Origin: an uncultured Mycoplasma sp.
GTDB taxonomy: Bacteria > Bacillota_I > Bacilli_A > Mycoplasmatales > Metamycoplasmataceae
DNA: 61,323 nucleotides
Direction: 5' to 3'
Assembly (NCBI GenBank): GCA_947039505.1
Contig: CAMQYZ010000003.1
Span: forward strand, 111,323 to 172,645
This document shows positions 44,683 to 61,323 of the stretch, one piece after another. Both the position numbers and the translations under genes were made by a program. How positions within the stretch are numbered: position 1 is the first letter of the stretch; each line of letters begins with the position of its first letter. The notes beneath the pieces were generated by a model. The model was not told the origin of the DNA and did not search any database. It saw only the letters and a list, made by a program, of their open reading frames with translations.

Positions 44683-45429
44683 TTATAATTTATCTAGCAA
44701 ATCTTTAATCTTCATATAGGATATATCTAAAAAATCGAATTCTTTAATTCGTTCAACCATAAGTAAAATTTCATCTGGGATTTTTTCTTTTGTTAAATTG
44801 GACTCAATTTGAACTTCTGACCAAATCTCTTTTAATATTTTGACAGTTTTTACAATAAGTTCTTGTTGTGTGATATTTACTAACTTTTGAGTTAAACAAG
44901 CGTTCATATAAACAAGAGCCATATAATAAAGTTGCATTCTTTGCAACTTATTTTCAATAACTGAAAAAATATTATTAATTTCTCCCTTGCAACTTGATTT
45001 TCATTCTTTTAAATAAAACTTATTCAATTTATTTCTGACATTGTCACAAATATAATAAATTTCTAAATTAACATTTTCATCAGAAGATATTTCTTTTAAA
45101 CATTCTGAACATGGTGGTATGGTGATAATTAAAATGAATTTTTTACTGCCGCTTAAAGTAATAACAGCGCCACCCAAGGCTTTATCATAACACTTGGTTT
45201 CGGCATGATTCTTATAATCTGTAGTTTTATCATTTAATCTTGAATTTACTTTTGAATTTATTAAATAACAATCTTCTAACATAATAGAAGCTGCTATAGA
45301 AAAACCTCTTCTTATAGACGATTTATTATCAATTATTTTTTTAACCATTGAATTAATAGAATCTTCATATTTTTTTGTTAATTGTCAATTCCTTCATATA
45401 AAATATAAATATTTTAAAAATTTTATCAT
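44683..45429 (-). CDS. Cytidine-deaminase-fold protein 2
   Basis: A 248-residue protein if the ATG at 45429 is used, or 221 from the ATG at 45348. The deaminase zinc site is clear: YKNHAET and TIPPCSEC (H48, E50, C80, C83 counted from the shorter start). The upstream codons are open through two TGA-coded Trp, but no strong Shine-Dalgarno sequence marks the longer start; TTA or TTG codons in between are other options. The C-terminal half is helical. It is the last gene in a same-strand series with an AIPR gene 60 bases upstream and a C5 methyltransferase before that. It is a relative of the deaminase at 36481. Confidence 0.7.
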
Positions 45430-45489: not shown

Positions 45490-47139
45490 TTAAAATATTT
45501 CATTGATTAATTCAAGTACACCTATTTTACTCTTCATTAAACCCAGTGTAGTTTTGTAAGTGGCTACATTATTTTGAAACATTTTGTCAATTTTGTCAGA
45601 AATTTTATTAATATAATTTTCAATATTTGCTTCTATTAAATATTGAAAATTATTTCTTGTTACTCCGAATTCCTTAATAATAATTACAAATAACAAGTAC
45701 TCTATAGAGTTCTTTATTTTTTCATTATTTCCATTAATCATTTTTAATTTTAGGAATTTTTTTAATTGTTCAAAAATTTTGTATAAACTAATTATAGTAT
45801 CCATATTTTCATCATTTTCTAAGAAATTTCTAGTTTTTTCTCACAATGAGTTTTCATCATTATAAAGTTTGTTAAAATTATTTTTACAAGAAGATAAAAC
45901 GAATGATAAATCATTATTGTCATCTTTAGAAAGAAAACAAGAAACAATCCTTAATACAATTTCAGCTTTTATTAAATTATCATTAATTCTATTTTTTTTA
46001 ACATTTACTCCTCTTCTAAATTCATAAACATAACCTTTAAGTAAAAACCTCTTATACAAATTTTTATTCAAAGGATGGAATGAGAATTTATCAAACTCTT
46101 TTACGGTATTTTGTGTATTTGAAAATAGTGATATTTTATTCATAACTTCTTCATTGGCCCTCAATATTTTAACCATAACATAACAATCATCTTGTAATAA
46201 ATTCATTTCATTTGCTTGATATAAAGATGATATTGTCTGAGCGCCATTAACAATGCTAAATTTTTCTAAAGTATATACACAATTATTGTTTCGACGAATT
46301 TCTTCACAAACAATAGTTATTCCATTATTGTATTTAATGAAATTATTTGAATCAGTTTTTATTGTATTAATTATTGAAGTTGTAATTTTATTTTTCTTCA
46401 AAGTGCCTCTTAGATTAGCAGAAAAAAGGGTTTCATTTTCAATAAATTTTCCTAAATTTTTAATTAAGTCTTTTGCAGAAACTACAGAATTACAAATTTC
46501 AATATCTTCATCATCCTTAAAAATAGTTAATTCTTTATTAAATTTCATTTCAACAGAAGAAACAACACTAAAGGGGGAAATTCACTCCATAACATTTTCT
46601 AAATCCATATAATTATAAGATGTCATGGAGTCATTATATGTTTTCATTTCATTTATTATTTGATTTTTATTACTTATAATTTCAGAATCTCAAGATTCTT
46701 GTTCTTTTGATATATTTGCAAAGTAACATTTCACACTTCTGTTCTTATCATTACATTTATTTCATTTTCCTAAAGTGTCACTTATTAACTCTTTATTTTG
46801 AGAATTAACAACTCCATTAAGTAATTGATCTACGGAAGTTTTGAATGATTTTACATTAGTCAACATTAAGTTAGTTCGTGGGCTAAATTTGGTTTGAAAT
46901 ATATGTAACGTATGTGCATTATCCAAATAAATTATATCAATTCCATTATCTTCACTACCATCAATCACATACTTTTCAAATGATTTTATTTTATTGTGAT
47001 TTAAAAAAAGTGTTTTTTCTAGAACAAGTAAAGAAAATGATTTTGAACTTAAATATTCGTTTTGTTTTTCACTAGCCTTTAAATAATTATTATTCACTAA
47101 AAAATAAGTAATATTTTCTTTAATTTTTTCATTATTCAT
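45490..47139 (-). CDS. AIPR-family abortive-infection protein
   Basis: A 549-residue protein of the AIPR (abortive infection phage resistance) family. Typical elements are present: an N-terminal nuclease-like segment (GSEDNGIDIIYLDNAHTLHIFQTKFS, with D...Q.K), the central SANLRGTLKKNKIT, FIKYNNGITIVCEEI, and FSIVNGAQTISSLYQ, and then FSNTQNTV. The ATG at 47139 was preferred over a TTG 12 bases upstream because GGAGAAA precedes it at normal spacing. The segment D...Q.K resembles a PD-(D/E)xK nuclease core. AIPR members such as AbiZ-like relatives stop phage by killing or arresting the cell. Next gene downstream is a deaminase. Confidence 0.83.
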
Positions 47140-47178
47140 GATTTTCTCCAATCATATCCAAATTTTTATCATTGAATT

Positions 47179-48321
47179 TTATTTAATATTTTTCATTATC
47201 TCTGCAACAACACCAACTATTAAAGCATTTCCCATTGTAAAGTATCTTGCTCTATTTGGCATTTCTGAAGTTCAATTATCATCAAATCCATTTAAGCGTT
47301 CACATTCAACAGGAGAGAGAAATCTTGGACCTTGCTTTGTTTCTATCATATGAGTTGATCTATTTGCCGTTGCTTCACTAGTTAACATTGTTCTTGATGC
47401 TTTATTTAAATCATCATATAAATTCATTTTACCTTCAGAATAGTTATATTTGGTTCCATCACTTTTTTCTCTAATGAGACGTTTATGACTTTTGTAATAT
47501 TCCATTTTTTCAAACTGATGACTATTCAATAATAACTCTTTATTTATTTTTTTGTCAATAAGTATATCTTTAAGATAAATAAATTCACCTTCATATTGAC
47601 TAATAAATTTGGAGCTTTCTATTTTTCCACCTTTCATAACTCCATATTCTAAGAATTTTCCCTCATCATAGGTATCAGAAAGGTTTTGTAAGTCATTATA
47701 AGTATTTATATCTATTTCTAATGGTTTATCTATTAACTTGAACTTAAAAGCATGATTAAAAATGTTTTGTTTTTTCTGAGATTGTTTATAAGCAAAGATA
47801 AAAACTCTTTTTCTTCTTTGTGAAAAGCCAAAATCAGAACCATTGTTCACCATTCACTCAACGTTATAACCATTATCATTAAAACATTTTAAAATAATAG
47901 CAAAATCTCTTCCTCTTTGTTTAGCAGGAGACTTTAATAAACGATCTACATTTTCAAGCAAGACATATTTTGGATTGCGATTTTTCAAAATTCAATCAAT
48001 TTCTCATCAAAGAACACCCTTGATCCCTTCAATACCTTTAGCCTTTGTAGTTGCTACTGAATAATCTTGACAAGGAAATCCTCCGACTAGAAGGTCAAAT
48101 TTTTTAGGGATTTTTTCTTTCGCAATAGATATATCTTCATTTGAATGTTTATCAGAAACTCCAAAATGTCTTTGATAGCAATCAAAAGCATATTGCATTT
48201 TTTTATTTGGTTCTCATTGATTAGCTCAAATAAAATCAAAATCTTTACCTGATTTTTCAGCTGCTACCCGAAAACCACCAACACCAGCAAATAATTCAAC
48301 TACTTTAATTGGTTTCGACAT
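47179..48321 (-). CDS. DNA cytosine-C5 methyltransferase of the Sau3AI-type system
   Basis: A 380-residue C5 methyltransferase. Motif I VVELFAGVGGFRVA, motif IV VGGFPCQDYSVA with catalytic Cys, motif VI VLLENVDRLL, motif VIII FSQRRKRVFIF, and motif X MGNALIVGVV are all intact. It is divergent from a Sau3AI-family endonuclease by 95 bases, so the likely target is GATC with methylation of C. The same strand continues into the AIPR gene 39 bases after its stop. The intervening region holds a perfect palindrome with a -10 box on each strand. Trp residues are TGA-coded. Confidence 0.88.
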
Positions 48322-48359: not shown

Positions 48360-48416
48360 ATACAAAGAAAAAATGCTAATTATAGATTAAATAAATAATT
48401 GGCACTTGGAGGAATC

Positions 48417-49736
48417 ATGGAATATACAACTCTCGATCAAATAATTAAAAAATGTGAAGAAATTAAGAATAAGAAGGTGAAGGACATTGTTTCTTCTGAA
48501 AATGTTTTAATATCAGCCGATAAGGGGAAACTAGGAAAATTAATTGAAGAAGAAGTATTTGGGATTAAAGCAAATAGTAATAGTGCTCCTGATTTTGAAA
48601 AATTAGGGATTGAACTAAAAGTAACTGGCTTAATTAAGTATAAGAAAAAAGATAATGAAGGAAGAAAATATAAGGCAAAGGAAAGAATTTCTCTAGGAAT
48701 GATTAATTATATCTCAATTCTGGATGAACCTACTTTTGAAAAATCACATATCTATTTCAAAATGCAAAAAACACTTTATATTTTTTATGAATACAGATAT
48801 GACAAACCAATGTCTGAATGAAAGATTGTTGATTTTAAATATGTTGAACTAAATTCATCAAACAATATCAAAACTCTAACGGAAGATTATAATATTATTT
48901 TTTCAAAAATTAAAGAAGGTAAAGCAGAGGAATTAAGCGAAGGACTAACTAAACAATTAGGAGCATGTACAAAAGGAACTGGAAAATCATTAGTTAAACA
49001 ACCAAATTCTAAAACATTAGTAAAACCTAGAGCATTTAGTTGAAAACCAAACCATGTTAACCAAATCTTTTATAGCGAAGGTATTGAAATTCCTGAAAGT
49101 GATGTAATGAATTTTATTATTGATAAAATTCAACCATTTCATGGACTTAGTATCAGAGAAATCTACAAAAAAATGAATTTGTCTATTCCTGAATCTAAAA
49201 ACCAAAAAGATACTATTGTTAATAAATTATTGGGAACTAAAAGTTATGCACAAATCCCGAATATTCAACAAAGTGTTTTTAAAATTAAAAATATAGAGCT
49301 CAAAAATAACGGCAAACTAAAGGAAGAAGTTGGTTTAATGAATGTGAATATCAGTGAATTTGAGAATGATATACCTTTTAATGAAAGTGAATTATATACA
49401 TTTTTAATTTCTTACAAATTTCTTTTTATAATATGACAAAAAATAGAGGAAGAATCTATTTTTAAAGAGATTAAACTTTTCCAATTTGATAGCTTGCTAG
49501 TTAAAAAGGCTGAATTTGTTTATAACGATACTAAAGAGAAGTTTTTAAATGGCATGAAACTAGAAGAAGTTAAGGGCAGAAGAATGTCTAACCTTATTCA
49601 TAAGTCTAATAATCAAGGATTTCACCTAAGACCTCATGGACAAGATAGCAAAGATACTATGACAACTCCTTTTGGACAAGTAATTACCAAACAACAATAT
49701 TGATTAAACGGCAACGAAGTAGAAGATGTTGTTTAA
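48417..49736 (+). CDS. Sau3AI/MutH-family type II restriction endonuclease
   Basis: A 439-residue Sau3AI-type enzyme that cuts GATC. The MutH-like N-terminal domain has KGKLGKLIEE (E44), PDFEKLGIELKVTG with D59, E66, K68, and the following KYKAKERISLG. The C-terminal half is a second, non-catalytic MutH-like domain, as in Sau3AI (SKNQKD, HKSNNQGFHLRPHGQDSKD). ATG at 48417 follows GGAGGAATC, a strong Shine-Dalgarno sequence. It is divergent from the C5 methyltransferase. The similar but inactivated copy follows 1.2 kb downstream. Four or more TGA are Trp. Confidence 0.88.
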
Positions 49737-50910: not shown

Positions 50911-52236
50911 ATCGAATACACAACACTTGATCAAATAATTACAAAATGTGCAGAAATTAAAAATAAGAAAGTTAAAGATATTTTAACATCACAAAACATC
51001 TTGGAATCCCATGATCAAACACAATTAGAAAACTTAATTAAAAAAGAAGTTTTTAAAATTAAGTTACAGAAAAACAATCCTAATAATTTTGAAAAATTAG
51101 GGATTCAATTAAAAGTAACTGGATTAATAAAATATAAAAAACCTGATAATGAAGGCAGAAAATATAAAGCGAAAGAAATTATTTCCCTAGGATCAATTAG
51201 TGACCAAGTAATTCTTGGCAAACCTAATTTTGAAAAATCAGCTTTATATACTCAAATGCAAAAGACTTTATATGTTTTTTATGAATATAGATATGACAAA
51301 CCAATGTCTGAATGAAAGATTATTGATTTTAAATATGTTGAACTAGATGCATCAACCAATATTAAAACATTAGTAAATGATTATGAACTGATCTTTGCAA
51401 AAATTAAAAAAGGTAAGAGTGAAGACTTAAATCATTCTTCGACAGAGGAATTAAGCATTACTATCCCTAAAAAAATACAACCCAAATTAGAAGGCTCCGT
51501 TTCATCCTGAGAGTTTTTATTAAAACCTAATTATGTTAATAAGATATTTTATAGCAAAAGTGTCAAAGTTAATGATGCTGACGTTATGTTTTCAATCGTT
51601 AATAAGATCCAACCTTTTCATGGATTAACCATTGGAGAAATATATAAGGAAATGAACTTACCTATTCCGGAAGCTAAAAATCAAAAAGATGCCATCATTA
51701 ATAAATTATTAAATACTAAGAGTTATGATGAAATCCTCAACATTAAACCAAGTGTTTTTAAAATTAGAAATATTGAATTAAAAAATAATGGCAAACTCAA
51801 AGATGAGATTGCGTTAATGAATGTTAATGATAATGAATTTTTGAATGATGTTCCCTTTAATGAAAGTGAACTATATACCTTTTTAATTTCTTATAAGTTT
51901 CTTTTCATTGTGTGACAAAAAAGAGGAGAAGAGTCTGTTTTCAAAGATGTGATGCTTTTTCAATTTAATAACAAACTAATTACAAAAGCTGAATTTGTTT
52001 ATAACGATACTAAAGAGAAGTTTTTAACAGGAATGGAATTAGAACGAGTTGGAGACAGAACAATGTCTAATTTGATACATAAATCAAGTAATATAGGGAT
52101 TTTACTAAGACCTCATGGACAAAATAGCAAAGATACGATGGCAACTCCCTTTGGACAAGTAATTACCAAACAACAATATTGACTGAATAGCAATGAAGTT
52201 GAACGAGTAATCGGAAATAATAAGGAATTTGAATAA
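50911..52236 (+). CDS. Catalytically dead Sau3AI-like paralogue without ATG start
   Basis: A 441-codon frame that aligns with the endonuclease at 48417 from end to end and has no TAA/TAG. The start that aligns with the ATG is ATC after TGGAGGCATC; ATC is permitted but poor in code 4. In the active-site block the catalytic residues are changed: E44 to K (LIKKE), D59 to N, and E66 to Q (IQLKVTG), while K68 is kept. The G40 and K36 equivalents are also lost. The C-terminal half is well preserved (SSNIGILLRPHGQNSKD). It is either a late pseudogene or a non-cutting homologue that binds GATC or pairs with the active enzyme. Confidence 0.7.
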
Positions 52237-53482: not shown

Positions 53483-54598
53483 TTAATTATTTGATTTAAA
53501 CATTTTTTGATGAAACTTTAAATATTTTTCTTTTTTCGAAAAATCATCAATTGAAATTATTATATCTCCATTTTTGCAATTCAAAATTTCTTCAACTTGT
53601 TTAATATTGTTTTTTATTAATAATTCTCCGTTTTCTATTATGGTAAATTTGTATTTATCAAACAATGCATCACAATTAGCGCACAACAACAAACCATTGT
53701 TAATATCACTGATATATAGTATTTTATCTTCTATGGTTAAATTAGATTGTTTTTTAATTTGATTAACAGCCATTATATGAGAACCTCTTAAGGCTGTCTC
53801 ATGAAAAATATTGTGATGAAGATTTTGACATCTAGGAGGATTAAAATCATTTACCAACTTATCTTTAAATTCTTTTCTTGCTTTAACTTCATACCCCGCT
53901 TTTCTTTCATCATTATTATCTTGTTCTAATGAAATCATTAATTTTTCTAATTTTCATGTTTGATATTCATGCTTAACTTTTGCATTTATAAAATTCTTGA
54001 TTTTTGTTTTGGGAATAATTGAAACATTTTTTTTATTATTTTCTAATATATCTCCATCATTAATGCAATTTTTAATATTAAATAAAGAAACTCACCTAGA
54101 AGAGGGATTAGTGTTCAAACCCGAATTATTTAACTTGTTAGAAAGATTATTTTTATATCCAGTTGCTTCAAAAACCTGATTTGGAAGAACAAATAAATAG
54201 ACAAGATTATCGTTGTCCAATTCTAGATTCTCTGACACTCTTTTATAAGGTATATACAAATTAACAATAAAAACAATGTCATCTAATATAATGTTTTGAA
54301 AAACTTTGTTGTTGAAGGGAATAGATACTTTAACACGAGGGTTGGGGTTATCATGTTTGTTATTTCCTCCGCCATCTATATATTCTATGTAGAAATAAAC
54401 AATTTTATTATCAATTTTTATACTGAATAATCCTTCGCAATTATTCAATGATTTAATGTCATTAATAGAAATGTTCATATCTTCTGCAAACAGTTTAATA
54501 AACACTTCTTTGGTTCTTGTGTTGTAATAAGGATGAGTATGAAAAACTGGTTCAATTTCTTTATCAACTATTTCTTTGTAATAATTTTTTTTAGACAC
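53483..54598 (-). CDS. Type II restriction endonuclease, HNH type (second system)
   Basis: A 371-residue enzyme. Residues 1 to about 210 are a domain (HPYYNTRTKEVFIKLF, FYIEYIDGGGNNKHDN, VFIVNLYIPYKR) with no match I know, probably target recognition. The C-terminus has an HNH arrangement: RCQNLHHNIFHETAL, GSHIMAVNQIKKQS, and NGLLLCANCDALFDKYKF. It starts at GTG, which overlaps the methyltransferase stop by 8 bases, so translation is coupled to the methyltransferase. AAGGAG in the methyltransferase 3' end serves as ribosome site. The N-terminal domain is copied in the chimeric gene at 58482. Confidence 0.8.
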
Positions 54599-54985
54599 TC
54601 AAAATCTCCTTAATCAATTTATAAATAACATCTACATTAACTGCGTTGCCATATTGTTTATATGCCTGACTATCTTGAGGTGAAACAATATGTTTTGAAG
54701 GAAATGATTGAATATTGGCGTTTTCTCTAGGCGTCAAAAATCTTCATGTTGAATCTGTTTTGATAATTGGAACTTGAACCATTGCAACTAACGTTGGAAA
54801 AGTATGTGGTCTTCTGCACCTGATTCCAGATTGACGTAATTGTATAAATGATTCTTCAAACTTATAGTCCATGCCAGCTTGTCACTCTAATTTCTTATCT
54901 CTTTTACCATTAAATATTTTCTTATTTTTAAAATATCACTCATCAATAAAGTTTTTGTTTTGTTTATAGAATTCTCTCATTTTAT
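53972..54985 (-). repeat. Inverted repeat arm A (methyltransferase end + endonuclease start)
   Basis: A segment of about 1.0 kb covering the last third of the methyltransferase and the first 210 codons of the endonuclease. It recurs in opposite orientation at 58100-59127. The outer boundaries are at MREFYKQNK and at FIN.KVK. The copies differ by scattered substitutions and short gaps. Confidence 0.85.
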
Positions 54986-55913
54986 TTATATATATTTTTT
55001 TTCAATCAGGAAATTCAGAATCTATTTTAGTCTTTGAAAGCATTTCATCAATTCATATTACAGGTATTCTTACTTTAATGCTCAAAAAGTAATTAACAAA
55101 CTCTGCTCAAGATACAAATAATTTGTGCAATTGATCATTAACATTATATTTTTTATCAACTTTTTTTTCTAAAAAGTTTTTATGTATACCTATTTTATAT
55201 TCTTCTTTTAGAATGTTGATGGTGAGTTTTTTAACTTTAATTATAGATTTATGAATGGCCGGAATATAAACCCTTGGTCTATCTTGCGGTATTCCAAACT
55301 CTTTAGGAGAAAGTATTACAGGGTTTTCACTCATTATATAACCTCTTTCTTTCAAAGAATCTATAATTATTTTATAAGTTTCTCCATTATTATGGTTAAT
55401 TAGATGTTTTACATTTTCTAAAAGGAGTATTTTCGGTTTCTTTATATCTATTAGATTCAATATATCAAAAAACAAAGTTCCCTTAACTTTATCTAGAAAA
55501 CCCAGTTTCTTTCCGGCATTAGAAAAAGTTTGACAAGGAAATCCAGCAAATAATATATGAACATCATCGTTTCAATTTTCAAAATCAATATCCCTAATAT
55601 TTATTATATCTGTTGGTTTCATCTTAAAATTTAAGGAATAGTTATCAATAGCATTCTTATCTATTTCAGAGGCAAGCACACACTTTGTTTTTATTTTTTT
55701 TTCATTAGAAAATTTTTCAAAAGCAAAATGAAAACCTCCTATTCCAGCGAAAAGATCAATGTAATTAACTTGTTTTAAACTTTTAATATAATCTATTGGT
55801 TTATCGAAGATTTCATCTTCTATTATGTTGTTATTTATTGTTTTTGAAAAACCTTTAGAGAAATTGCCAAATTTGTCTATTTTATCAACGTTTTTTTTAG
55901 CTTCAATTTTCAT
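54591..55913 (-). CDS. DNA cytosine-C5 methyltransferase (second HNH-linked system)
   Basis: A 440-residue C5 methyltransferase. Motif I NYIDLFAGIGGFHFAF, motif IV FAGFPCQTFSNAGKK with catalytic Cys, motif VI LLLENVKHLINH, motif VIII IPQDRPRVYIPA, and motif X YKQYGNAVNV are intact. The target-recognition part lies at 55000-55150. Its 3' end overlaps the GTG of the HNH endonuclease by 8 bases. The first 50 residues are an extra N-terminal segment before motif I. The gene is divergent from the GmrSD-type gene at 56153 with palindromic sites in between. The last third is duplicated as a pseudogene at 58100. Confidence 0.88.
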
Positions 55914-57931: not shown

Positions 57932-58099
57932 TTTAATCCTTATTTAATTACTCTTATATCACAATATCATCAAGATAAAATAACTGATTTTGCTTTTACC
58001 AATTTATAAAATTTTGAAAATAATAATTAAAATATATTGATTTATTTAAAAAAATATAACACTATGATATATAATTTATAAAACATAAAACAAAATTGT

Positions 58100-58484
58100 G
58101 TGATATAAAATGAGATAATTCTATAAACAAAACAAAACTTTTATTGATGAGTGATATTTAAAAAATAAGAAAATATTTAATGGTAAGAGACATAAGAAGT
58201 TAGAGTGACAAGTTGGCATGGATTATAAGTTTGAGGAATCATTCATTCAACTACGTCAATCTGGAATAAGGTGCAGAAAACCACATACTTTTCCAAGGTT
58301 GGTTGCAATGGTTAAAGTTCCAATTATCAAAAAAGATTCAACATGAAGATTTTTGAAACCTAAAGAAAACGCCAATATTCAATCATTTCCCTCAAAACAA
58401 ATTGTTTCATCTCAGCATATAAACAATATGGAAACGCAGTTAATGTAGATGTTATTTATAAATTGATTAAGGAGATTTTAAGTG
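58100..58484 (+). pseudogene. Decayed copy of methyltransferase C-terminus
   Basis: It aligns with the last 130 codons of the methyltransferase at 54591, in opposite orientation: FYKQNKTFIDEWYLKNKKIF, RQSGIRCRKPHTFPRLVAMV and ENANIQSFPSKQIVS. A G-to-T change makes a TAA right after the MR at the start of the copied segment, and a 10-base deletion near QIVSSQ shifts the frame. The end keeps the AAGGAGATTTTAAGTGCC that overlaps the start of the chimeric gene. No methyltransferase core is present. Confidence 0.85.
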
Positions 58485-59127
58485 CCTAACAAAAAAGAAA
58501 AAAATAATTATTATAAAGAAATTGTTAATAAAGAAATCGAACCAGTTTCTCGCAGTCATCCTTATTATAATATGAGGACAAAAGAAGTCTTTATTAAGCA
58601 GTTTGCAGAAGATATGGATATTTCTATCAATGACATTAAATCATCAAGCAATTGCGAAGCATTTTTTAGCACAAAGATAGATAATAAAATTGTTTATTTT
58701 TACATAGAATATATTGATGGCGGAGGGGAAAATAAAAATGATAACCCTAACCCTCGTGTTAAAGTATCTATTCCCTACAACAACAAAGTTTTTCAAGACA
58801 TAAAAGATCATATTGTTTTTATTGTGAATTTATATGTACCCTATAAAAGAGATTTAGAGAATTCAAAATTAGATTTAGATATTGATAATCTTATATATTT
58901 ATTAATTCTTCCCAGTGAAATTCGTAAAAGTAAAGTAAATTTAAATATTCTTTCTAACAAGTTAACTAATTCAAACTTGAAAACCAACTCTTCTTCAAGG
59001 TGAGTTTCTTTATCTGATATTAGAAATTGTATTAATGATGGAAATATAATGGAAAATAATAAAAAAAATGTTTCAATTATTCCTAAAACAAAAATTAACA
59101 ATTTTATAAATGAAAAAGTTAAAAATT
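58100..59127 (+). repeat. Inverted repeat arm B (methyltransferase fragment + endonuclease N-domain)
   Basis: The inverted partner of 53972-54985. Homology starts near ATGAGA.AATTCTATAAAC and runs through the methyltransferase remnant into the first 210 codons of the chimeric gene, ending at FINEKVK. The stretch between the arms, about 3.1 kb, holds most of the methyltransferase and the GmrSD gene. Confidence 0.85.
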
Positions 59128-61323
59128 CTATAAATACAAAAGAAATAGTTCCTAAAAATAACCTTAATAAAGAAGATTATTTAAAAAATATAAAAGATTA
59201 TGTTGATTCTGAAGATAAAAACACCCTTTTAAAAAAAATAACAGACTATGTTGATTCTGAAGCAAAACATAGTGAAAAATTTATAAAACCTATTTTTATT
59301 TTTGGTGAAAAAGGGGTAGGAAAATCTTTCTTTATAAAGAATAAAATGATTCATGAATTGAGAGAACGTAAGAATGAGGCGTTCAGCATAGAGGCTAACA
59401 ACTTAGAAGAACTTAAGAATGAAATATATGAATTGACTAATGAAAAAAAGTTGTGCGCTACATTTTTAAAAATAATAAGGAAGGATAGAAATATTACTAT
59501 TTTATTTCTAACAATAATATTTACACCATTTATGGGTTTATTAATAACAAGTTGTTCAAAAATTAATTTATCATCATTATGATCACTTGGTATAGTTATT
59601 TCATCATTAACTTTATTTTTTTGTATCCTAACAGCAATATATATTTTTTGATATCCACATTCAACTAAAGGAAAATTAACTAAATCATTCAAATCTCTTT
59701 CAAAAAAAATTGAAGATAAAAAATATTTCTATCTTTTTATAGATGATTTAAATAGAGTTAAGGATAAGAATGAAGTTTATAAAATATATAAATTTATTGA
59801 TAACATTCTCAAAAATACTGAGAGAATTTTTAAAAAAATTATTATTATTTATGTTAATGAAAAACAATTTTTCAACAAAGAAGATGAAGAAAATATAAAA
59901 AAATATATAGGATGTGAAATTATTATGACTATAAATGATTCCATAGATGATTTTATGACAAAATTTCAAAAAGGATTTGATTATATAAAAAACATTTTAA
60001 AGATTCCTGAAAATTTTGAATTAGTAAATCTAATGCCTAATTTTCCTGATTTTATTAAAAAATCTCCAGAAAAATTACACTTTGCTGAAATTTGCTTAAA
60101 AGAATTTAATTTATTCATAAATTTAAACAAAAATTCAGAGAAAAAATTTAAATATTTATTTGGTTATGATGATCAAAATGAAAAAAAATCTATAAAATTA
60201 GACATTGTATTTTACATTCAAATGCTTTTTTTAAACATTTGCTTTAAAGAAACTTTTGTAAAATGATCGGAACATTATTTAAACTATTACAAGATACCAA
60301 GGAATAATGAAAGCTCTGTAATTCCATTATTTTATCCCAATCTTGACTTAATATTAAACAAAGAAGAAGTTGATATTTGAAGTAAGATTAAACATAAAAA
60401 TATTAATAATAAAGAGGATTTTATAAATCTTGTTTTTGAAAATAAAAGTTTTAAATTAGTTGAATACTTAAATCAAGAAAATATTCCAAAAAATAAATTA
60501 TTAATAAATGATTTTTTGGAATATTTTTATAAATTGGATTTTTTTCTATCATTGTTTAGAGGATGTGATCCAGGCGAAAAAACTCAAAATAGTTTTTTTA
60601 TCTTTGAAAACTTTAAAAATTATGATATTGAGGTAATATATGAAACTTTTTTATATGGCATAAGAAAAAATAAATTAGAATCAAATAAACAACTTCCAGA
60701 ATCAAAGTACTCTAATTCATGTGAAAAAAGAGATATGAATATTAATTATTTGAATATTAATAAAAAAATTCTTGATAAATATGAAAAAAAGTGTGAAAAA
60801 GAAAAAAGGGATATTGAAAACCGTTTAAGAAGGTCATGAACGATGAATAGATTATTGATTAAATCTCATAAAGAGAGCGTAGTTTTAGGAAATATTAAAA
60901 AAACAAATATTGAGAAAAATACTGCTAAATATGTTGATCAAGAGCATATACTTCCTCAAAAAGAAGCTATTGAGAAATATGAAAAAGCGATAAGCATAGA
61001 TGAAAGCAACATTAATGCTTATGTGAATCAAGGGAACGCTCTAGTTAAACAAGGTAAATTGGATGAAGCTATAGAGGAATATGAAAAAGCAATAAATATA
61101 GATGAAACCAACATTAATGCTTATGTTAATTGAGGTTTGGCATTGTATAAGAAAGAAAAATTCGATGAAGCTATTGATAAATATGAAAAAGCAATAAGTA
61201 TAGATGAAAGAGACATTAATGCTTATGTGAATTGAGGTAATGTTTTGAGTAAACAAGGTAAATTTAATGAAGCTATTGAGAAATATGAAAAAGCGATAAG
61301 CATAGATGAAAGCAACATTAATG
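58482..61323 (+). CDS. Chimera: endonuclease N-domain + membrane KAP NTPase + TPR repeats, partial
   Basis: One open frame of over 947 codons, running off the right edge; all breaks are TGA (Trp). Residues 1-215 are a close copy of the recognition half of the HNH endonuclease at 53483 (SHPYYNMRTKEVFIKQF, FYIEYIDGGGENKNDN). Then comes a KAP NTPase: Walker A FGEKGVGKS (about 274-282), two transmembrane helices (about 335-362 and 368-393, ILFLTIIFTPFMGLLITS and ISSLTLFFCILTAIYIF), and Walker B YLFIDDLNR (417-425), the KAP layout. TPR-type 34-residue repeats follow from about 826 (EAIEKYEKAISIDESNINAY). GTG start after AAGGAG. A nuclease domain is replaced by a membrane NTPase with TPR sensor. 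Confidence 0.83.

What the first reader, a model, noticed from the sequence alone, without database searches (positions are those of the whole stretch)
58482..61323. Restriction-endonuclease recognition domain fused to a membrane KAP NTPase with TPR tail
The first 215 residues copy the N-terminal domain of the HNH endonuclease at 53483. Where that enzyme continues into its HNH nuclease, this ORF continues without a stop into a KAP NTPase with paired membrane helices and then TPR repeats. I know of no described system with a type II endonuclease recognition domain on a KAP-TPR protein. If the N-domain recognises a DNA site, this would be a membrane-anchored ATPase triggered by unmethylated foreign DNA.
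Basis: partly seen in the sequence, partly recalled or inferred. Interest (0 to 1): 0.92.

Follow-up and report, generated by a model that had tools for sequence, protein, structure and literature searches.

The report
Restriction-enzyme domain fused to membrane ATPase
A wall-less bacterium carries one gene in which the front domain of a DNA-cutting defence enzyme is joined in frame to a membrane ATPase with a protein-binding repeat tail; the join is real and probably translated, but it was made from the debris of a copied restriction system, is known from this one genome, and nothing yet shows that the added domain does anything.

Summary
Read with TGA=Trp, window 58482-61322 is one open frame (947+ aa). 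Residues 1-214 are about 76% identical to the N-domain of the HNH enzyme at 53483-54598. The rest is a KAP-like NTPase with two membrane helices between Walker A and Walker B, then TPRs that run off the contig end.

It spans 58105-59122 and also holds a dead 3' end of the neighbouring C5 methyltransferase (in-frame stop, 10-nt deletion). The gene is therefore an in-frame join of a decayed second copy of the R-M operon to the front of a KAP-TPR gene. A strong Shine-Dalgarno and GTG start remain, and no usual start codon remains ahead of the NTPase, so a fusion protein is the likely product. In nine other genomes this N-domain always sits on an HNH enzyme beside its methyltransferase. The one KAP relative found lacks it.

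'Recognition domain' and 'triggered by unmethylated DNA' are not supported: the N-domain model matches no known fold, and its place on the NTPase is the effector/adaptor end. Post-fusion selection on the N-domain could not be shown. New variant of a known kind; moderate interest.

The parts
58482..59123 (+). N-domain of the fusion (residues 1-214), copy of the front of the HNH enzyme
   Evidence: AlphaFold model pLDDT 83
59124..60959 (+). KAP-like NTPase part: Walker A 59304-59327, membrane helices 59493-59549 and 59592-59648, Walker B from about 59727
60960..61322 (+). TPR array, cut by the contig end; probably continues at contig C1:3-326
58105..58481 (+). Dead remnant of the 3' end of a C5 methyltransferase gene (in-frame TAA, 10-nt deletion)
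58469..58474 (+). Shine-Dalgarno AAGGAG, 7 nt before the GTG start at 58482, same as before the HNH enzyme gene
   Evidence: sequence
59049..59051 (+). Only other plausible start before the NTPase: ATG at residue 190 (TTA in the HNH copy), weak ribosome-site context
   Evidence: no in-frame ATG/GTG/TTG from 59052 to 59345
53483..54598 (-). HNH endonuclease (N-domain 53973-54598, HNH part 53483-53972)
   Evidence: Pfam HNH_2 E = 2.9e-9; weak match to NCBIfam MAG4270 putative restriction endonuclease, below cut-off
54591..55913 (-). Intact C5 cytosine methyltransferase directly before the HNH enzyme
   Evidence: Pfam DNA_methylase E = 1.5e-69
53973..55002 (-). Left arm of the inverted repeat pair; right arm 58088-59122
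58088..59122 (+). Right arm of the inverted repeat pair; left arm 53973-55002

Best explanation
The gene is a chimera made by a DNA rearrangement. A second, related copy of the local type II R-M operon decayed to a block holding the 3' end of its methyltransferase and the 5' part of its endonuclease, and this block was joined in frame just upstream of a complete KAP-TPR gene. The KAP gene's own start was lost, and translation now begins at the endonuclease's ribosome site, so the cell most likely makes an N-domain-KAP-TPR protein. The working part is most likely the KAP-TPR portion, a membrane-anchored NTPase whose TPR tail senses or scaffolds, as in the published NTPase-TPR conflict proteins. 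The N-domain is most likely a folded passenger, at most a cytoplasmic tether to DNA or to the HNH enzyme. Shown: the in-frame join, the copied block, the dead MTase remnant, the retained ribosome site and start, the absence of another usual start codon between residue 190 and Walker A. Inferred: that the protein is made, that KAP-TPR is a defence ATPase, and that the N-domain adds little.
For: The copied block ignores gene boundaries and includes a dead MTase remnant. AAGGAG-7 nt-GTG is kept. The only KAP relative found, in G008, has no N-domain, starts about 40 residues before Walker A and aligns to this protein there. In nine other genomes the N-domain is always on an HNH enzyme next to a C5 methyltransferase, never on a KAP protein. 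The locus lies among other defence-type genes.
Against: The fused N-domain has no stop or frameshift and keeps 27 of 28 residues invariant elsewhere; all three indels against the HNH copy are multiples of three, which would also fit a maintained, working domain. KAP membership is weakly supported, and defence function is only inferred.
Confidence: 0.5

Rival explanations
1. One reading: the N-domain binds the R-M recognition site when unmethylated and triggers the membrane ATPase, so foreign DNA is sensed by a membrane-anchored KAP protein.
For: The N-domain belongs to an endonuclease family always paired with a C5 methyltransferase, and the local methyltransferase is intact.
Against: No evidence that the N-domain binds DNA. 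The published architecture puts the sensor at the TPR end. A single genome, and no conserved co-occurrence.
Confidence: 0.13
2. Adaptor model: the shared N-domain pairs with the N-domain of the HNH enzyme, so the KAP-TPR sensor recruits, holds or activates the nuclease, as homotypic adaptor domains do in other conflict systems.
For: The same domain stands at the front of both proteins of one locus. Homotypic adaptors shared by NTPases and effectors are an established principle (PMC8195603).
Against: Published adaptors are mostly small helical domains; this one is a larger alpha/beta domain. No self-association data and no second instance.
Confidence: 0.12
3. The N-domain is not part of the product: translation starts at ATG 59049 (residue 190) and the upstream frame is a decaying relic that happens to be open.
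For: The adjoining MTase remnant is dead. Absence of stops in the N-domain is not significant (P 0.18-0.42). ATG 59049 replaces a TTA of the HNH copy.
Against: Strong ribosome site at 58469-58474 and a weak one before 59049; 27 of 28 invariant residues kept.
Confidence: 0.15
4. Inversion switch: recombination between the 1-kb inverted arms flips the segment between them, placing either the HNH nuclease or KAP-TPR behind the intact methyltransferase, in frame in both states.
For: Inverted arms 53973-55002 and 58088-59122, with a 47-bp exact stretch over the start site; RecA is encoded. Invertible hsd genes are known in other bacteria (PMC4948785).
Against: The arms are only 84% alike, no tyrosine recombinase was found, and only one orientation is known.
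Confidence: 0.06
5. Assembly artefact: the N-domain and the KAP gene are not joined in the cell.
For: Reads were not available; the contig ends nearby in repeats.
Against: The junction lies 2.2 kb inside a 172-kb contig, and the two copies differ by 16% with no exact stretch above 47 bp.
Confidence: 0.04

Closest known systems
HNH endonuclease of a C5-methyltransferase-linked type II R-M system of mollicutes (NCBIfam MAG4270-like)
   Same: N-domain, ribosome site and upstream methyltransferase 3' end are a copy of such an operon
   Different: The HNH nuclease part is absent from the fusion and the methyltransferase remnant is dead
KAP-like relative in genome G008, contig C58 (same genus)
   Same: Nearly identical Walker A neighbourhood, paired membrane helices, a GmrSD-type gene next door
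   Different: No N-domain; cut off by its contig end before Walker B; the GmrSD genes are only about 25% identical
KAP P-loop NTPases (Pfam PF07693)
   Same: Membrane helices between Walker A and Walker B, FIDDLNR Walker B motif, weak profile match
   Different: Below detection by the Pfam model
STAND/Avs-type and related NTPase-TPR conflict proteins (PMC10907252, PMC8195603)
   Same: Order N-terminal domain, NTPase, C-terminal TPRs; KAP is reported to replace STAND in some systems
   Different: Not a STAND NTPase; the N-domain is not a known effector or adaptor; membrane helices inside the NTPase

Membership tests
KAP P-loop NTPase | Walker A and Walker B of a P-loop NTPase | tested here: met
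   GEKGVGKS at residue 275 and FIDDLNR at about 418
KAP P-loop NTPase | Membrane helices inserted between Walker A and Walker B | tested here: met
   Hydropathy peaks at 338-356 and 371-389
KAP P-loop NTPase | Sequence similarity to the KAP family | tested here: inconclusive
   Pfam model gives no hit; profile comparison finds Walker A (probability 44.5%) and Walker B (score 31.1 against a maximum of 24.2 in 100 shuffles)
Type II restriction endonuclease (C5-linked HNH) | HNH nuclease domain in the same protein | tested here: not met
   Homology ends at 59122, before the HNH part
Type II restriction endonuclease (C5-linked HNH) | Intact cognate methyltransferase directly upstream | tested here: not met
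   Only a dead 3' remnant precedes the fusion
Type II restriction endonuclease (C5-linked HNH) | N-domain of this endonuclease family | tested here: met
   E = 2.4e-91 to the local enzyme; nine other genomes
Tripartite NTPase-TPR conflict protein | N-terminal effector or adaptor, NTPase, C-terminal repeat sensor | tested here: inconclusive
   Order met; no recognised effector; no match to PADLOC models
Tripartite NTPase-TPR conflict protein | Protection against phage | not testable with these tools
   Needs an experiment
Effector-associated adaptor (EAD) pair | Same domain on NTPase and effector, with homotypic binding | not testable with these tools
   Shared domain shown; binding not testable

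The most novel reading that the evidence does not exclude
The shared N-domain is a functional coupler: it links a membrane KAP-TPR sensor to a restriction system, either by binding the methylation-protected site or by pairing with the HNH enzyme, so that a nuclease and a membrane ATPase respond together. The inverted arms may also let the cell swap HNH and KAP-TPR behind the methyltransferase.
Probability: 0.2. Interest if true: 0.78.

Novelty: new variant of a known kind. Interest (0 to 1): 0.42.

Why it matters
If the N-domain works on the KAP-TPR protein, it would be a direct link between a classical restriction-modification system and a membrane NTPase-TPR protein, and a way to make an R-M system signal rather than only cut. 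Even as an accident it is a caught-in-the-act example of how decaying R-M copies in a defence island can supply start sites and N-terminal domains to neighbouring NTPase genes, a plausible route to the domain shuffling seen in defence proteins.

Tried and rejected
Post-fusion selection on the N-domain: neutral simulation using the MTase remnant's substitutions (P of no stop 0.18-0.42), polarised amino-acid changes (Fisher P = 0.22 and 0.45) and breaks at invariant columns (P = 0.64) were all inconclusive. Other N-domain-KAP fusions: none in 320 genomes of the order, a 392-genome sample of the phylum, GTDB contigs, viral contigs, plasmids or phages; the GTDB-contig scan used only one short peptide pattern. 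Single-query hits in G011 and G264 lie in unrelated proteins. KAP relatives: beyond G008, the hits in G202 and G628 are DnaI-like ATPases. Folding the KAP part failed for lack of relatives (pLDDT 36), so no fold search was made with it. The idea that the KAP-TPR gene and the adjacent GmrSD gene form a conserved pair with G008 was rejected: the two GmrSD genes are only about 25% identical, no closer than to another GmrSD gene of the same genome. Inversion by a site-specific recombinase: no tyrosine recombinase found. Inactivation of the local HNH enzyme from its His-to-Cys change at a conserved position was considered and dropped, because a nearby Cys-to-His change may compensate (alignment).

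Full report
What is there. The window is the end of a 172-kb contig (C3) of an 804-kb mollicute genome that reads TGA as Trp. In that code 58482-61322 is one open frame of 947 aa running off the contig. Residues 1-214 match the N-terminal part of the HNH enzyme at 53483-54598 on the other strand (E = 2.4e-91; 76% aa and 83% nt identity). After residue 214 the match stops abruptly (59122), and the frame continues into a P-loop NTPase with Walker A at 275, two membrane helices at 338-356 and 371-389, Walker B FIDDLNR at about 418, and TPRs from about 827. The contig ends inside the TPR array. Contig C1 starts inside a like array that closes after 107 aa, so the gene probably ends there, with an unknown number of repeats missing between.

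The similarity does not begin at the ORF start. It extends 377 nt upstream, to 58105, and there covers the 3' end of the C5 methyltransferase whose intact copy precedes the HNH enzyme. The upstream copy has an in-frame TAA and a 10-nt deletion and is dead. So a block of about 1 kb of an R-M operon, cut without regard to gene boundaries, lies inverted relative to the intact operon and runs in frame into the KAP-like gene. The pair forms inverted arms 53973-55002 and 58088-59122. The arms are 84% identical, with no exact stretch above 47 bp, so a repeat-driven misassembly of the junction is unlikely.

How the gene is probably read. The block brings AAGGAG seven bases before GTG 58482, as before the HNH gene itself. 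From 59052 to 59345 there is no ATG, GTG or TTG in frame, although the G008 relative starts about 40 residues before Walker A with sequence that aligns to this protein. The KAP gene's own start is therefore gone. Either the whole fusion is made, which the ribosome site favours, or translation starts weakly at ATG 59049, residue 190. This is inference; there are no expression data.

Relatives. A profile of the N-domain finds it in nine other mollicute genomes of 320 searched. In every one it is the front of an HNH enzyme lying directly after a C5 methyltransferase. GTDB contigs, viral contigs, plasmids and phages gave no other arrangement. The KAP-like part has one real relative, in G008, without the N-domain. 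The fusion is so far a single case.

What the N-domain is. It folds confidently in prediction (pLDDT 83, pTM 0.83) as a mixed alpha/beta domain, but no solved or viral structure matches at E <= 1e-3, and no Pfam or PDB sequence match exists. Its role as a recognition domain is a guess from its place in front of the HNH nuclease.

Is it kept by selection? The two copies diverged under protein-level constraint (dN/dS 0.23 in the N-domain, 0.22 in the MTase part), and the fused copy keeps 27 of 28 residues that are invariant elsewhere. But the dead MTase fragment shows the same dN/dS, so much of this divergence probably predates the break-up. Three tests of constraint after fusion were inconclusive. 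I cannot say that the N-domain is maintained in the fusion.

KAP identity. Pfam's KAP model does not reach this protein. Membrane helices between the Walker motifs, the FIDDLNR motif and weak profile matches (Walker B score 31.1 against a shuffled maximum of 24.2) point to KAP. I call it KAP-like and do not file it as a member.

Mechanism. Published NTPase-TPR conflict proteins sense with the TPR end and act through the N-terminal end (PMC10907252), KAP can replace STAND in such systems, and shared adaptor domains link NTPases with effectors (PMC8195603). On that pattern the N-domain sits where an effector or adaptor would be, not where the trigger would be. My best account is a chimera in which KAP-TPR is the working part and the N-domain is a folded passenger or tether (0.5). 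A DNA-triggered ATPase (0.13), a homotypic adaptor to the HNH enzyme (0.12), an untranslated N-domain (0.15) and an inversion switch (0.06; RecA present, no tyrosine recombinase) remain open.

Surroundings. The locus is a defence island: a GmrSD-type gene, an AIPR protein and two MutH/Sau3AI-like enzymes, with more defence-type genes at the start of C1. In such a place decaying R-M copies next to NTPase genes are expected, which makes an accidental join plausible and a later use of it possible.

Noticed in passing
59181-59270 (+): A short tandem duplication just before Walker A (LKNIKDYVDSEDKN / LLKKITDYVDSEAKH); only the second unit aligns well with the G008 relative.
   Followed up: partly
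53483-53972 (-): In the local HNH enzyme a His conserved in all nine relatives is Cys (LCANCDALFD), and a conserved Cys nearby appears as His; this may be a compensated swap of zinc ligands.
   Followed up: partly
48399-49736 and 51001-52236 (+): Two paralogous MutH/Sau3AI-like restriction genes about 1.3 kb apart, next to a C5 methyltransferase at 47179-48321 on the other strand.
   Followed up: partly
45490-47172 (-): AIPR-family gene (abortive-infection type), with a weak match to MzaE of the MZA system, beside a possible deaminase-like gene at 44683-45429.
   Followed up: no
L008 (contig C1:1-15000): The probable other side of the contig break holds further defence-type genes: two HNH proteins, a KAP NTPase, a SIR2-like protein, an FRG protein followed by a TPR frame, and a GmrSD gene.
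   Followed up: partly
60960-61322 and contig C1:1-326: TPR units are very similar to each other at DNA level, which probably broke the assembly; the number of repeats may vary between strains.
   Followed up: no
58485-58520 (+): The fused copy has a 12-nt insertion with A6 and A7 tracts just after its start codon, relative to the HNH copy; possible slippage site.
   Followed up: no
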